This document shows, in pieces, positions 35,532-44,902 of a stretch of 55,084 bases of DNA; the first letter of the stretch is position 1, and each line of letters starts with the position of its first letter. The notes below the pieces were generated by a model. That model was given only the letters and a program-made list of their open reading frames with translations, did no database searches and was not told the DNA's origin. The stretch comes from Truepera sp. bin119 (GTDB lineage Bacteria; Deinococcota; Deinococci; Deinococcales; Trueperaceae). The stretch is taken from the NCBI GenBank assembly GCA_002239005.1, contig MPNL01000020.1, positions 1 through 55,084 of the forward strand, in the 5' to 3' direction. A program made the translations under genes and the position numbers.

Positions 35532-35560
35532 TTGACATTGATTGAAATGTGTAGTAAATA
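35532..35560 (+). promoter_or_regulatory. Strong sigma-70-type promoter of the XRE cassette, leaderless
   Basis: TTGACA (35532-35537), exactly 17 bp, then TAAATA (35555-35560). The ATG of the regulator begins 7 bp after the -10 box, so transcription should start at or within a base of the start codon. The AT-rich spacer stands out from the surrounding GC-rich DNA. Confidence 0.8.
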
Positions 35561-35566
35561 GGACAC

Positions 35567-35920
35567 ATGACACACTTTGGCAGCGCCATCCGAAACCGGC
35601 GCGAGCATCTGCGCCAGAAGGACAGGCGCTATTCCTTGCGCCAGGTTGCCCTGCGAATCGGGATCGAGCCGGCCTATCTGAGCAAGATCGAGCGGTGCGA
35701 CGTGGCGCCACCTTCGGAGGCCACGACGATCCGGCTAGCGCGGGAACTCGGCGAGGACCCAGACGTGCTCTTGGCCCTGGCGGGGAAGGTCTCGAGCGAT
35801 CTTCAGGAGATCATCCGCAAGCGCCCCCGGCTGTTCGCGGAACTGATCAGGCAACTCAAGGAAGTCCCGGACCACGCCATTCTCCGTGTTGTGCGTGAGG
35901 TGCGGGACGGCGAGTGGTAG
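35567..35920 (+). CDS. XRE-family helix-turn-helix transcriptional regulator
   Basis: 117 residues. The HTH is at about residues 22-45: YSLRQVALRIGIEPAYLSKIER, with the recognition helix containing AYLSKIER, followed by the typical APPSEATTIRLARELGEDPDVLLALAGK. The C-terminal helix region (LQEIIRKRPRLFAELIRQLKEVPDHAI) probably dimerises. Starts at an ATG that coincides with the predicted transcription start, so it is read without a Shine-Dalgarno sequence. It is the first gene of a two-gene cassette with the unknown protein 10 bp downstream, and likely regulates the cassette itself. No inverted-repeat operator was identified with confidence. Confidence 0.92.
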   Translation: MTHFGSAIRNRREHLRQKDRRYSLRQVALRIGIEPAYLSKIERCDVAPPSEATTIRLARELGEDPDVLLALAGKVSSDLQEIIRKRPRLFAELIRQLKEVPDHAILRVVREVRDGEW

Positions 35921-35930
35921 GGAGGGATCG

Positions 35931-36944
35931 ATGATCACGCTCGAAAACGACAGGCTGGTGCTTCGCTTCTCCGATATCCATGGTGACGCACGCTGCGCGA
36001 TCGAGTTCCAGCGAACCTTGCGCATCCCGGACGACGACAGAGACTACCCGCTGCCGCCGGGTCTCGGTCGCTTCCCGTTGCGGCATCTAGACGACCATGC
36101 ACCGCGCTTACCGGAGCAATGGCGTCGCCGGGGTGGCGTGATCGCGCCCATCCACCAGGCCGAGGCCATGTGGATCAACTTCGAGGCCGACTCCGGCTAT
36201 CCGTTCGCGGTGAAGATCGCGACCGGCAAGATCTGCGCGCTCACCGGCGACGGCTGGGTCGATCACCTGAACAGCGATCCGCAGGACTACGTCGTGCTGC
36301 CCGAACAGCCATGGCTCGACGGATATTGTGTGGAGAGGGGAGTGATCCGCCAGTTCGTCGCCATGCCCCTGGGCGACGGCTACACGGTCGAGGAACAGCT
36401 TACGGGCGCGGCCCGGCACGGCGGCCTTCAGATCGTCGTCTATCCGATGAAGCGGGAACGATACCGGCAGCTGCTGGCTCGAGATCTCGATCGCTCTCGG
36501 CCGCTTTCCGCTGAGGCGCCAATACTTCAGGCACCTTCCGCCATCGGGCTCGCGCCCGGCGGCCGGATGAAACAGGAGGTCTATGACGACCCGCATGGTC
36601 TGGATGCCTGGGACCAGCGGCATGGCGCCCGCTGTTTCATCACCCTTGCCAATTCCACCCAGTGGCTGGCGATCACAGGTGAGCGACCGCCGACTGTCCC
36701 ACCGACAGCGAAGCAGTACACCGAAGCGGGTTTTCCCTGGTTCGAGTGGTATGGCGGCGATGCCGTGGCGGTCGCTGGCGCGGAGAAGTTCAAGTCGCTT
36801 GCGAGCGTGACGCAGCTTGGCAAGGCAAAGGGTGAGGAGCCGCTGCCGGAAAACGAAACGACTGAGGTGCCCCACATTATCGGGCTGGGGTCCGGCGGTG
36901 TCCGCCCCGTGCGGGAGTATCCTGCCGACGAGACCGGGGGCTAG
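35931..36944 (+). CDS. Conserved protein of unknown function linked to an XRE regulator
   Basis: 337 residues starting at ATG 35931, preceded by AGGGAGGGATCG (good Shine-Dalgarno). The sequence is soluble-looking, with notable blocks DYPLPPGLGRFPLRHLDD, DYVVLPEQPWLDGYCVE, IRQFVAMPLGDGYTVEEQLT, LAPGGRMKQEVYDDPHGLDAWD and TAKQYTEAGFPWFEWY. I recall closely similar hypothetical proteins in Proteobacteria, which would make this a mobile two-gene cassette; this needs a search. No catalytic motif, signal peptide or membrane segment is recognised, and no function is assigned. Its composition and AT-rich promoter differ slightly from the chromosome. Flanked at 37061 by a piece of the palindromic repeat. 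Confidence 0.75.
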   Translation: MITLENDRLVLRFSDIHGDARCAIEFQRTLRIPDDDRDYPLPPGLGRFPLRHLDDHAPRLPEQWRRRGGVIAPIHQAEAMWINFEADSGYPFAVKIATGKICALTGDGWVDHLNSDPQDYVVLPEQPWLDGYCVERGVIRQFVAMPLGDGYTVEEQLTGAARHGGLQIVVYPMKRERYRQLLARDLDRSRPLSAEAPILQAPSAIGLAPGGRMKQEVYDDPHGLDAWDQRHGARCFITLANSTQWLAITGERPPTVPPTAKQYTEAGFPWFEWYGGDAVAVAGAEKFKSLASVTQLGKAKGEEPLPENETTEVPHIIGLGSGGVRPVREYPADETGG

Positions 36945-37149: not shown

Positions 37150-39393
37150 ATGAACCAGACTCGCCCAGAACGAGGTGTACTCGAGGCCGACCTGCCCACG
37201 GCGGTCTCACCCCGGCCGGTTCCTGAGGGGGCGGCTCTCGACCACCCCTCGCTCTACTTCAACCGCGAACTGGGGGATATCGACTTCAACTGGCGGGTGC
37301 TGTGGCAGGCGATGGACGACCGGGTCCCGCTGCTCGAGCGGGTCCGTTACCTGGCCATCACCTCGAGCAACCTCGACGAGCTCTTTCAGAAACGGGTCGG
37401 AGGCCTGCGCCGGCAGGAGGAGGCGAGGGTGGTCGAGCCCTCCCCCGATGGCCGCAGCCCGAGCGAACAGCTCGAGCTGATCCGCAACGCCAGCCGCCCC
37501 CTCTACAGTCGCCTAAGCGCGCTGTGGCGGCACACCCTGGAACCGCTGCTCGAGCGCAAGGCGAAGGTACGGATCCTGAACCGGTATGAGCTTAGTAAGA
37601 CGCAGCGGCAGCGGATGGCGCGGCACTTCCGCTCGAACATCTACCCGATCGTGACCCCGCTGGCGGTCGACTCGGGGCGGCCGTTCCCCTTTATCAGCAA
37701 CCTTAGTCTGTCGCTGGCGGTGACGCTCCGGCGCTGCGAGGGTGAAGAGTCACTCTTTGTGCGGATCAAGATACCGGTCTCTATGGGCCGCTGGTATGAG
37801 GTGCAGCCGGGGGTGTTCGTGCCGCTCGAGCAGCTGCTAAAGGAGCATGTCACCGCCTTCTTCCCAGGTATGGAGGTGACCGGAGCCTACGCCTTCCGGG
37901 TGACCCGCAACGCCGACATCCGCTTCGATGAGGAGGAGGCCGAAGACCTTATTGCAGCGATCAGCGAGGATCTCCGGGAGCGGAGGTTTGCACCGGTGGT
38001 CCGCCTGGAGGTCGAGCACGACATGCCCTCGGAGGTGAGGAGCTTCCTGGCTGAGAACCTGGCGATCCATGAGGAGGATATCTTCGAGGCGTCGAGCCTG
38101 CTGGGTCTCGCAGACTGTGGCTTCTTCGCCGACCTGCCCCTGCCCGATCTCACCTTCGGGCGGTGGAGTGGGGTCACCGCTCCGGCGATTGCGGAGCACA
38201 ACCGGGTCACCGAGAATCCCCCCCTGTTCGACCTGATCCGCCAGCACGATGTGCTGGTCCACCACCCCTATGAGTCGTTCTCAACCAGCGTCCAGCGCTT
38301 CATCGAAGAGGCGAGCGCGGAACCCCCAGGCCCCCCCCTCCCGCAAACCCCCCCCCACCACCCCTATGAGTCGTTCTCAACCAGCGTCCAGCGCTTCATC
38401 GAAGAGGCGAGCGAGGACCCTCAGGTCCTCGCCATCAAGCAGACCCTCTACCGGACCTCGGATGAGAGCCCGACCGTGGCCGCGCTGGTCCGGGCGGCGG
38501 AACTGGGCAAGCAGGTGGCGGTCCTGGTCGAGGTCAAGGCCCGCTTCGACGAACAGAACAATATCGAGTGGGGTGGGCGCCTCGAGGCCGCAGGGGTGCA
38601 TGTGAGCTACGGCTTCGCCCACCTCAAGATCCATACCAAGATCGTGCTGGTCGTCCGCCAGGAGAGGGATGGTATCCGCACCTACTGTCATATCGGCACC
38701 GGCAACTACAACAGCACCACCGCAAGGCTCTACACCGACCTGGGCCTTTTTACCTGCGACCCCGAGATCGGTGAGGACCTGGTCAACCTCTTCCACCACA
38801 TCACCGGCTACGCGCCGGAGCAGAACTACCGGGCCCTCCTGGTGGCCCCCTGGCACATGCGGGTGAGGATCCTGGAGATGATCGACCGCGAGATTGCCCA
38901 CCAACTCGAACATGGTGACGGTCGCATCATCGCCAAGCTGAATGGGCTCGACGATCTGCCCGTGATCCAGGCGCTCTACCGGGCCTCGCAGGCCGGGGTA
39001 CCGGTCGACCTGATCATCCGCGGGCACTCGCGGCTCAGGCCCGGTCTCAAGGGCTACAGCGAGAATATCCGGGTCATCAGCATCATCGGCCGCTTCCTCG
39101 AGCACGACCGCATCTTCTACTTCCACAACGGCGGCGATTCCGAGATCTTCATCGGTAGCGCCGACTGGAAGCGGCGCAACCTTACCGACCGGATCGAAGC
39201 GGCGGTTCCGGTGCGCCGGTCGGAGTTGAAGAGGCGGCTCCTGGCTATCCTCGAGGCGGCGCTCGCCGACAACCGCCTCGCCTGGGATCTGAGCCCCGAC
39301 GGCAGCTACCGGCAGCGCCTGCCGGTCGCAAGGGAGGGGGAGAGGGGCCTGCAGCAGGTGCTGATGGAGAGGGTGTCTAAGGGCGGCCCGTAG
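37150..39393 (+). CDS. ppk1: Polyphosphate kinase 1 (with 32-residue insertion)
   Basis: Makes and breaks inorganic polyphosphate from ATP. All PPK1 landmarks are present: YFNRELGDIDFNWRVL (N-domain), GRPFPFISNLSLSLAV, HHPYESFSTSVQRFIEEA, LAIKQTLYRTSDESP, HLKIHTKIVLVVR, the phosphohistidine region HIGTGNYN and the second conserved His in RFLEHDRIFYFHN, then IGSADWKRRNLTDRIEA. A GTG start at 37144 is also possible. An insertion duplicates HHPYESFSTSVQRFIEEAS plus a P-rich run (38261-38356); without it the protein is 715 residues, near family length. The stop overlaps the convergent quinate-dehydrogenase-like gene by 17 bp. Confidence 0.95.
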   Translation: MNQTRPERGVLEADLPTAVSPRPVPEGAALDHPSLYFNRELGDIDFNWRVLWQAMDDRVPLLERVRYLAITSSNLDELFQKRVGGLRRQEEARVVEPSPDGRSPSEQLELIRNASRPLYSRLSALWRHTLEPLLERKAKVRILNRYELSKTQRQRMARHFRSNIYPIVTPLAVDSGRPFPFISNLSLSLAVTLRRCEGEESLFVRIKIPVSMGRWYEVQPGVFVPLEQLLKEHVTAFFPGMEVTGAYAFRVTRNADIRFDEEEAEDLIAAISEDLRERRFAPVVRLEVEHDMPSEVRSFLAENLAIHEEDIFEASSLLGLADCGFFADLPLPDLTFGRWSGVTAPAIAEHNRVTENPPLFDLIRQHDVLVHHPYESFSTSVQRFIEEASAEPPGPPLPQTPPHHPYESFSTSVQRFIEEASEDPQVLAIKQTLYRTSDESPTVAALVRAAELGKQVAVLVEVKARFDEQNNIEWGGRLEAAGVHVSYGFAHLKIHTKIVLVVRQERDGIRTYCHIGTGNYNSTTARLYTDLGLFTCDPEIGEDLVNLFHHITGYAPEQNYRALLVAPWHMRVRILEMIDREIAHQLEHGDGRIIAKLNGLDDLPVIQALYRASQAGVPVDLIIRGHSRLRPGLKGYSENIRVISIIGRFLEHDRIFYFHNGGDSEIFIGSADWKRRNLTDRIEAAVPVRRSELKRRLLAILEAALADNRLAWDLSPDGSYRQRLPVAREGERGLQQVLMERVSKGGP
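38261..38413 (+). repeat. 96-bp in-frame duplication with C-run spacer inside ppk
   Basis: 57 bp at 38261-38317 recur exactly at 38357-38413. What lies between is a recognisable but corrupted copy of what follows the second block: GCGAGCGCGGAACCCCCAGG in place of GCGAGCGAGGACCCTCAGG, decaying to C. This gradual decay argues for low-quality read ends rather than an insertion. Confidence 0.8.
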
Positions 39394-42986: not shown

Positions 42987-44363
42987 CTAGCCACTGTCTG
43001 GAAGCGGATTCGCCGAGACCGGTAGGGAGATTGTTATCTCCGTATATTCTCCGGGGTCGGAGAGGGCCGTTATCGATCCACCGTGCTGCCTGACTATGTC
43101 GTTGGCGAGGCTGAGGCCGAGTCCCGTGCCTTTGCCAGGGGGTTTGGTAGTGAAGAATGGATCGAATATCTTGGTAATGATGTCTGGGGAGATGCCGCTG
43201 CCGTTATCCCGGATATGTATTTCGATGGTGTCGTCCTGTCGCTTCGTCTTGAGCCAGAGGGTTGGCGTATAGGCTTCGCCGGTACCGGCGAGCGTTCGGC
43301 GCTTCTCGTCGGTGGCGTAGCATGCGTTGTCTATCATATTGAGGAACGCACGGCCCATATCCTCGGAGGTGATGGACACTTCGCCCATGTTCGGGTCGAA
43401 GTCGTCTCTTATGTCGAGTTGGAAATCCTGATCGAGCGTACGGGCGCTCTGGTAGGCGAACAGTGCACGGTCTCCGAGCAGGTTGTTGATATCCGTCGGT
43501 CGGAATTCGCCGCCGCCTTGGCCTAACAAGAGCATGTCGTGGACGATGCGATCAGCGCGGTCGCTGTGGGAGCGGATGTGTTCCATGTTTTCGGCTAGGT
43601 CCTGGGATATTGCGGTGATAAGCCTCCTCTTGTCGTCGTCGAGATCACTGGCGCTGTCGTCGAGGGTCTCCAGCAGTTCGTCGAGCAGCTCCTCGGAGGC
43701 TTCGGAGAAGTTCTTCACGAAATTCAGCGGGTTTCTGATCTCGTGGGCGACGCTGGCGGTGAGTTCACCGAGTGCGGCAAGTTTCTGACGCAGGACTATC
43801 TGGTCCTGGGTCTGGCGCAACTCCAGGAGAACTCGCTCGAGCTCTTCGTTCTTCTCCTGAAGATCTTGGGATAGCTTTTGGACGAGATCCAACTGCAAAG
43901 CCTGGATGGAACGCTGTCTGAGCTCCTCGAGGGCGATGGCGAGTTTGGTGATCTCGTCCTTGCTGGACATCTCTACTCTGTAGTCCAGATCGCCGGCGCC
44001 CATGCGGCGTATCCAGACTTCCAGAGCGATGGAGCGTCGTCCGACGGTGATGAGTTGAAAAGTGGTGAATACTGCGAAGAAGGTGGTGGCGACCCCTATG
44101 ATCAGTAGCTGGCTGCGGCCCGTTGCAATAGCCTGTGCGGTTCGGTGCATGGTGTCATCAGTAGCGGCCGTCCCTGTGTACTGGAGCAGCTCCGCTAGAT
44201 CGCTCTGCACGGCCCCCTGGACGCTACTGAAAGAGTGGTGACTTGCGATGTTGATCAGGATGGCCAGCAAAGTGACCAGCAGCATGCTCAGGTTTATCTG
44301 GGTCGACTTGCGGCGGATGCTGAAACGGGGTAACGCGAACTCTTTGTCTGGGGGTGAGGACAT
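42987..44363 (-). CDS. Membrane sensor histidine kinase
   Basis: 458 residues. Two membrane helices (LSMLLVTLLAILINIAS, about 27-43; SQLLIIGVATTFFAVFTTF, about 83-101) flank a small periplasmic loop, then a HAMP-like linker (WIRRMGAGDLDYRVEMSSKDEITKLA), a coiled coil, and the kinase core: H-box VAHEIRNPLNFVKNF, N-box FLNMIDNACYATDEK, G1 IRDNGSGISPD, and FDPFFTTKPPGKGTGLGLSL. It belongs to the NtrB-like group that senses stress. No response regulator gene adjoins it, so it is an orphan. The start ATG overlaps a 36-bp repeat; GAGG lies upstream at good spacing. Confidence 0.9.
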   Translation of the reverse strand: MSSPPDKEFALPRFSIRRKSTQINLSMLLVTLLAILINIASHHSFSSVQGAVQSDLAELLQYTGTAATDDTMHRTAQAIATGRSQLLIIGVATTFFAVFTTFQLITVGRRSIALEVWIRRMGAGDLDYRVEMSSKDEITKLAIALEELRQRSIQALQLDLVQKLSQDLQEKNEELERVLLELRQTQDQIVLRQKLAALGELTASVAHEIRNPLNFVKNFSEASEELLDELLETLDDSASDLDDDKRRLITAISQDLAENMEHIRSHSDRADRIVHDMLLLGQGGGEFRPTDINNLLGDRALFAYQSARTLDQDFQLDIRDDFDPNMGEVSITSEDMGRAFLNMIDNACYATDEKRRTLAGTGEAYTPTLWLKTKRQDDTIEIHIRDNGSGISPDIITKIFDPFFTTKPPGKGTGLGLSLANDIVRQHGGSITALSDPGEYTEITISLPVSANPLPDSG

Positions 44364-44469
44364 GCTCTACCTCATTAACATGGCGAGGGTTGCTTGGCGC
44401 GATCGACATCGTCACTCCGGCCGGGGAGCTCGAATGCTCTACCTCATTAACATGGCGAGGGTTGCTTGG
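44362..44469. repeat. Two 36-bp direct repeats with a 36-bp spacer at the kinase start
   Basis: The 36-bp block at 44362-44397 recurs exactly at 44434-44469; the 36 bp between them differ. Copy 1 holds the kinase's ribosome-binding site and the first bases of its start codon (the reverse strand of GCTCTACCTC). The geometry resembles a minimal CRISPR array, but no cas genes or further repeats are present. Duplication of a promoter or operator region is more likely. Confidence 0.75.
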
Positions 44470-44902
44470 CTGTATGTCGCCATGCGCCGCCCGGTCCGGC
44501 AGGTGGCGGTTGGGCCTTCGGCAATTGCGGAGGCGTCGCACGTAATCCTTGCCCACCCCGGAGGAACGCCCTGCTACCGCCCGCTGGAGCGAGGGAGGGT
44601 CGGACACCGAATCCTTCCCAGCTTGAACAGCCGCGCTGGCCGAGTGTCGCCGGCGCGGCAGCCGTCTAGGAGTGCGGGGGCGGCCTTGTTCGAGCCGACA
44701 TTTCGGTCATGGGTATACGGACCGTGGTACCGGTCCCTCAAGCGTGGGTTCGGGCCTGTTCCTGCAGCTGGAGCAGCGGCTCCTTTAAGAAGGCCCTCAG
44801 CAGCAGGCGATCTGGGCGTCGTCATCCAGAATCTGGGACCTGGAAGCGATGCTCATTGGGGCCGGCTCGTCGCCGCCCGCTGGGGGGCAGGGGCTTGGGC
44901 CC
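44470..44902. other. Intergenic, nothing recognised
   Basis: Upstream of the kinase and past the 3' end of the DinB gene. Open frames here lack any family resemblance; no RNA gene was seen. Confidence 0.45.

What the first reader, a model, noticed from the sequence alone, without database searches (positions are those of the whole stretch)
35532..36944. Two-gene XRE/unknown cassette with a leaderless consensus promoter
The best promoter in the window (TTGACA, 17 bp, TAAATA) ends 7 bp before the regulator's ATG. The second gene encodes a 337-residue protein with very well-ordered conserved-looking blocks but no recognisable fold. Its composition and isolated position suggest acquisition as a unit. 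This is the strongest candidate for an uncharacterised system: a stress, defence or signalling pair in which the regulator controls the unknown protein.
Basis: partly seen in the sequence, partly recalled or inferred. Interest (0 to 1): 0.65.

Follow-up and report, generated by a model that had tools for sequence, protein, structure and literature searches.

The report
Mobile self-regulated repressor and unknown partner
A small DNA-binding repressor and a 337-residue protein of no described family sit together as a self-regulated gene pair found across more than fifteen bacterial phyla, megaplasmids and giant phages; both proteins carry the same short tail at their end, which suggests an undescribed way for an effector and its repressor to find each other.

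Summary
The pair is real and conserved. R (35567-35920) is a SinR/CapH-class XRE repressor. U (35931-36944) matches no Pfam, NCBIfam, PADLOC, PHROG or PDB sequence. Of 80 GTDB loci encoding U, 71 have an R homologue immediately upstream, and R and U distances correlate (Mantel r 0.83). The cassette is patchy: 1 clear copy in 111 genomes of its own phylum.

TTGACA lies exactly 35 nt before the ATG here and in most relatives. A palindromic operator, consensus GTGTAGTATATACTACAC, covers the -10 and abuts the ATG. It occurs once in the window's 3.2-Mb genome. So R is very probably a leaderless, dedicated autorepressor. This promoter is not the window's best, and composition does not mark the cassette as foreign.

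U folds confidently (pLDDT 89, pTM 0.86), without a PDB match but with clear giant-virus relatives. New here: every adjacent R ends in V-R-[DE]-G-x-W, and many U proteins end in the same kind of tail. R-like proteins lacking the tail are not next to U; one sits beside an IrrE/ImmA peptidase. I propose that U binds R through this tail as anti- or co-repressor plus effector, like ImmA or CapP without a peptidase motif. The contact is inferred; a co-fold did not show it.

The parts
35532..35537 (+). -35 hexamer TTGACA, exactly 35 nt upstream of the R start codon
   Evidence: same geometry in most homologous loci
35555..35560 (+). -10 position TAAATA (3 of 6 to TATAAT; relatives often have TATATA here), 17 nt after the -35
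35549..35566 (.). Operator-like imperfect palindrome GTGTAGTAAATAGGACAC covering the -10 and abutting the ATG; consensus GTGTAGTATATACTACAC
   Evidence: 62 of 71 loci within 5 mismatches; 4 hits in 946,171 background positions; only copy in the 3.2-Mb genome at up to 2 mismatches
35567..35920 (+). R: 117-aa XRE-family regulator (SinR/CapH/DdrO class HTH plus helical C-terminal part), predicted leaderless autorepressor
   Evidence: Pfam HTH_31 1.1e-6, HTH_3 2.4e-6; PADLOC capH 5.4e-7; SinR profile hit 4.6e-7; fold hits SinR, ClgR, DdrO, CapH
35900..35917 (+). R C-terminal tail VRDGEW (residues 112-117)
   Evidence: present in all 71 R proteins next to U; absent from R-like proteins away from U, with few exceptions
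35921..35926 (+). GGAGGG, Shine-Dalgarno-like site of U
   Evidence: sequence
35931..36944 (+). U: 337-aa protein of unknown function, two ordered parts (about 1-186 and 203-320), disordered linker 187-202 and tail
   Evidence: no match in Pfam, NCBIfam, PADLOC, PHROGs or PDB
36489..36536 (+). U linker (residues 187-202, pLDDT below 50), near the place where some jumbo-phage members carry inserts
36909..36920 (+). U tail motif VREY (residues 327-330), sponge-clade form of the shared VRE-G-x-W/F tail
   Evidence: VRE within the last 30 residues in 54 of 80 U proteins, 3.4 expected after shuffling the tails (relatedness not removed)

Best explanation
R and U form a transferable, self-limiting two-gene module. 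Step 1 (strongly supported by sequence, not by experiment): R binds one operator that covers the -10 and reaches the ATG. It represses its own leaderless transcript, and U with it, and has no other close-matching site in this genome. Step 2 (inferred): U binds R, using the C-terminal tail that both proteins share; R in effect presents a copy of U's own tail. U thereby acts as anti-repressor or co-repressor, so the operon responds to the amount or state of U. Step 3 (inferred): U is the effector or sensor, probably in a conflict between the cell and mobile DNA, since the module recurs in jumbo phages and megaplasmids and related R proteins head defence-like operons. This would work like ImmR-ImmA or CapH-CapP, with a peptidase replaced by a protein of a new fold family.
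For: Co-occurrence 71 of 80, gap mostly 8-32 nt. R and U distance matrices agree, Mantel r 0.825, best permutation 0.31. Operator conserved in 62 of 71 loci and single in the genome. R class is SinR/DdrO/CapH. Of 11,201 ORF segments in the held loci, those ending in the tail motif are only R, U, or one different, weakly NikA-like protein in the R position (L096). In six phage records the only V-R-[DE]-G-x-W-stop coding site is R. R-like proteins away from U mostly lack the tail (L149, L150, L154, L162-L168), and one of these, L162, is followed by an IrrE/ImmA-type peptidase. In Desulfonatronospira a tail-bearing R, an Hsp70-like gene and a UvrD helicase appear to lead into the U gene, joined by a near-identical overlap of about 140 nt between two contigs.
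Against: An R-U single-chain co-fold (L050, stop read through) gave pTM 0.78 with both tails unstructured, so no docking of the tail on U is predicted. The fusion hides R's free C-terminus and tests only 1:1 contact. U keeps its tail in several loci without R (L085, L087, L095, L100), so the tail is not only an R-U device. Tail-bearing R also occurs without a visible U (L152, and short viral fragments L160/L161). Genome neighbourhoods are mostly ordinary. Nothing here is experimental.
Confidence: 0.42

Rival explanations
1. The shared C-terminal tail is a degron or adaptor signal: one host or phage protease (for example a Clp machine) recognises both R and U, so both are short-lived and the module switches when that protease is diverted. 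R and U need not touch.
For: The motif is at the extreme C-terminus, exposed and disordered in both models. It is kept on U even without R. A protein with a different fold carries it in L096. One fold neighbour of R is ClgR, the regulator of clp genes. In L095 a ClpP-like gene lies 28 nt upstream of a U without R.
Against: Tail-less R relatives are those away from U, which fits U recognition better. In the sponge clade U has residues beyond the VRE motif. One ClpP neighbour is an anecdote.
Confidence: 0.25
2. A toxin-antitoxin module: R is the antitoxin and autorepressor, U a toxin, with co-repression by the complex.
For: Two-gene operon, autoregulation, mobility and weak HigA-like similarity of R (TIGR02607, E 0.011).
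Against: U is large, matches no toxin family, occurs without R in a minority of loci and lacks obvious catalytic motifs; R is more conserved than U (mean distance 0.32 against 0.42), unusual for an antitoxin.
Confidence: 0.12
3. An anti-phage defence or anti-mobile-element module proper, with U sensing or blocking an invader.
For: Patchy occurrence across phyla; R resembles CapH; tail-bearing R precedes a SNF2 helicase close to DrmD/BrxH/DpdE models; single U neighbours match defence-associated models (DpdF, SoFic, PsyrT, a PD-T4-6-like kinase); a vWA fusion in L074.
Against: Most loci are not in defence islands; jumbo phages carry the module too, which suits counter-defence or competition between mobile elements as well.
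Confidence: 0.15

Closest known systems
ImmR-ImmA (ICEBs1, TnSmu1), DdrO-IrrE and CapH-CapP repressor-peptidase pairs
   Same: Small XRE repressor of the same class (capH model E 5.4e-7; CapH and DdrO among fold hits) with a co-transcribed partner; a tail-less relative of R in L162 is followed by a Peptidase_M78 gene. The ImmR/ImmA, CapH/CapP and DdrO/IrrE logic is described in PMC10233336.
   Different: U has no HExxH motif except a chance-like occurrence in L040 and no match to a peptidase; the C-terminal tail is absent from the tail-less relatives.
C (controller) proteins of restriction-modification systems
   Same: Small autoregulating XRE proteins; C.BclI and C.AhdI are fold hits; some are leaderless (my own knowledge).
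   Different: No methyltransferase or nuclease in the operon; R has about 45 extra C-terminal residues including the tail.
SinR-SinI
   Same: R's best profile and fold hits are SinR; SinR is controlled by a small partner protein (established knowledge).
   Different: U is 337 aa, unrelated to SinI, and R is tied to one operon.
Giant-virus uncharacterised proteins (Harvfovirus; Hyperionvirus 'ubiquitin-like domain-containing')
   Same: U fold, Foldseek E 2.3e-21 and 3.2e-20 (21-22% identity) and 2.4e-9.
   Different: Longer proteins (449-613 aa) of unknown function. That eukaryotic relatives carry a ubiquitin domain inside this fold is a recollection, not tested.

Membership tests
XRE/HTH_3 superfamily regulator (R) | HTH domain above curated cut-off | tested here: met
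   PF13560 29.3 bits (cut-off 27), PF01381 27.9 (cut-off 23)
Repressor-peptidase pair (ImmR-ImmA, CapH-CapP, DdrO-IrrE) | partner with HExxH / Peptidase_M78 or CapP domain | tested here: not met
   U matches no Pfam or PADLOC family and HExxH appears in 1 of 80 U proteins
Repressor-peptidase pair (ImmR-ImmA, CapH-CapP, DdrO-IrrE) | repressor of the same class controlling the operon | tested here: inconclusive
   class matches and operator is on its own promoter; repression not measured
Type II toxin-antitoxin | recognised toxin fold or family | tested here: not met
Type II toxin-antitoxin | toxicity neutralised by the antitoxin | not testable with these tools
   needs an expression experiment
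Restriction-modification controller (C protein) | linked methyltransferase and endonuclease | tested here: not met
   window ORFs and neighbour scans show no recurring partner other than U
Leaderless autorepressed operon | promoter at -35/-10 of the start codon and operator over it | tested here: met
   transcript start itself not mapped
Known anti-phage defence system | match to a described defence protein | tested here: not met
   PADLOC: U no hit; R only generic HTH and capH

The most novel reading that the evidence does not exclude
U founds a new class of repressor partner that recognises its repressor through a C-terminal peptide (V-R-[DE]-G-x-W) which the repressor copies from U itself; the fold is shared by bacteria, jumbo phages and giant viruses of eukaryotes and serves in conflicts between mobile elements and hosts.
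Probability: 0.25. Interest if true: 0.78.

Novelty: new variant of a known kind. Interest (0 to 1): 0.6.

Why it matters
An undescribed protein family without an experimental structure or a curated model is tied, over more than fifteen phyla plus jumbo phages and megaplasmids, to one type of leaderless autorepressor. The shared C-terminal tail gives a single short peptide to mutate, so the question of what U does and how it meets R becomes directly testable. If the giant-virus structural match reflects common descent, U is also a bacterial relative of unexplained giant-virus proteins.

Tried and rejected
Family searches for U in four libraries, singly and (Pfam, PHROGs) for all 65 members: nothing significant. 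PDB by sequence, profile and fold: nothing. A conserved third gene: none across unrelated loci; only lineage synteny and DUF932 behind U in four loci. Defence-island membership: not general. A clean empty site in relatives: not shown; the PPK neighbour is conserved but the ABC-transporter neighbour is not beside it in the closest relatives held. Terminal repeats of a mobile element: only weak repeats. RNA families at the locus and tRNA genes in the window: none. Tail docking in an R-U co-fold: not seen. Giant-virus U in IMG/VR by DNA pattern: only already known phage-type contigs. Exact motif strings in the literature: no papers. I first thought that the R tail never occurs without adjacent U; L152 and L160/L161 contradict that. 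One search was a meaningless query and is not used. The Fisher test is biased by how loci were collected and is not relied on.

Full report
What is there. R (35567-35920, 117 aa) and U (35931-36944, 337 aa) are co-directional, 10 nt apart, between an ABC transporter on the other strand and a polyphosphate kinase. R is an XRE regulator: Pfam HTH_31 and HTH_3 above cut-off, capH model 5.4e-7, SinR as best PDB relative by profile, and SinR, ClgR, DdrO, CapH and C proteins by fold. U has no match in Pfam, NCBIfam, PADLOC, PHROGs or PDB.

Promoter and operator. TTGACA begins exactly 35 nt before the ATG, with a 17-nt spacer. The -10, TAAATA, is weak (3 of 6), so the site was not listed by the consensus scan and is not a 'best promoter'. 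Comparison of 71 loci shows why the spot matters: TTGACA is kept within one mismatch in 56 of 71, and a perfect-palindrome consensus, GTGTAGTATATACTACAC, is found within five mismatches in 62 of 71 upstream regions, against 4 hits in 946,171 background positions; in 37 it ends directly at the start codon. In the window it is GTGTAGTAAATAGGACAC, 35549-35566, and is the only match at up to 2 mismatches in the 3.2-Mb genome. Steric autorepression of a leaderless message is the straightforward reading; U has its own Shine-Dalgarno-like GGAGGG.

Distribution. One genome-collection scan gave 80 loci with U, from at least sixteen NCBI phyla, many from sponge metagenomes by their record titles. R lies immediately upstream in 71; two of the nine others are cut by the contig start. 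R and U distances correlate at 0.825, permutation maximum 0.31. R is more conserved than U (mean distance 0.32 against 0.42). In the window's own phylum 1 of 111 genomes has a clear copy (a second match at E 2.5e-4 is doubtful), and the nearest relatives are acidobacterial and gemmatimonad. The phylum labels cluster on the U tree and many branches are weak, so transfer is suggested mainly by patchiness. U also occurs on megaplasmids, in a phage record and in 15 IMG/VR contigs up to 543 kb, 10 of them with R. Among 72,556 plasmids R occurs in two, both next to U.

Fold. AlphaFold2 on 65 sequences: pLDDT 88.8, pTM 0.86, two ordered parts, disordered linker 187-202 and tail. No PDB fold match (best E 0.088). 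BFVD matches Harvfovirus proteins at 2.3e-21 and 3.2e-20 and a Hyperionvirus ubiquitin-like-domain protein at 2.4e-9. Some jumbo-phage members carry inserts near the linker.

Shared tail. R ends in V-R-[DE]-G-x-W; many U proteins end in V-R-E-G-x-F or, in phages, V-x-[DN]-G-K-W. In the sponge clade, to which the window belongs, VRE is kept but followed by further residues; VRE lies within the last 30 residues in 54 of 80 U proteins, 3.4 expected after shuffling (relatedness not removed). Among 11,201 six-frame segments the end motif marks only R, U, and one other protein that replaces R in L096; the latter has a weak NikA-like hit below cut-off. In phage records the V-R-[DE]-G-x-W-stop pattern found only R. 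R-like proteins without the tail were not next to U; one, L162, precedes a Peptidase_M78 gene, the partner type of ImmR- and DdrO-like repressors (PMC10233336). Exceptions: L152 (tail, then a SNF2 helicase near DrmD), L153 (tail, Hsp70, UvrD, probably leading to U), and short viral pieces L160/L161.

Mechanism. Shown by sequence comparison: linked pair, conserved operator and promoter geometry, shared tail. Inferred: repression, leaderlessness, R-U contact through the tail, role in conflicts. The co-fold test was negative or uninformative. The main rival is a common degron.

Verdict. It is an uncharacterised, broadly distributed regulatory-effector module: like repressor-antirepressor pairs in layout, not a member of any of them by the partner test.

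Noticed in passing
window 38259-38446: The polyphosphate kinase gene next to the cassette carries an in-frame 96-bp tandem duplication (92 nt at 87% identity) that repeats HHPYESFSTSVQRFIEEAS; matches of relatives break at this point.
   Followed up: partly
window 44362-44470: Two perfect 37-nt direct repeats 72 nt apart at the start of a sensor histidine kinase gene.
   Followed up: no
L074:8001-9551: A U homologue fused to a von Willebrand A domain (PF00092, 3.7e-7).
   Followed up: partly
L023 and L037, C-terminal extensions of U: Two further U fusions (about 246 and 184 extra residues) without Pfam match.
   Followed up: partly
L044, L047, L056, L060; L154: DUF932 gene directly behind U in four loci, and behind a tail-less R paralogue in L154.
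   Followed up: partly
L152, L153 (Desulfonatronospira MAG): Tail-bearing R copies head a SNF2-helicase operon and an Hsp70-UvrD operon.
   Followed up: partly
L055:81-788, L081, L078: A 236-aa protein family with no Pfam match recurs next to U in three loci.
   Followed up: partly
L095:5380-5973: ClpP-like gene 28 nt upstream of a U gene without R on a 194-kb viral contig.
   Followed up: no
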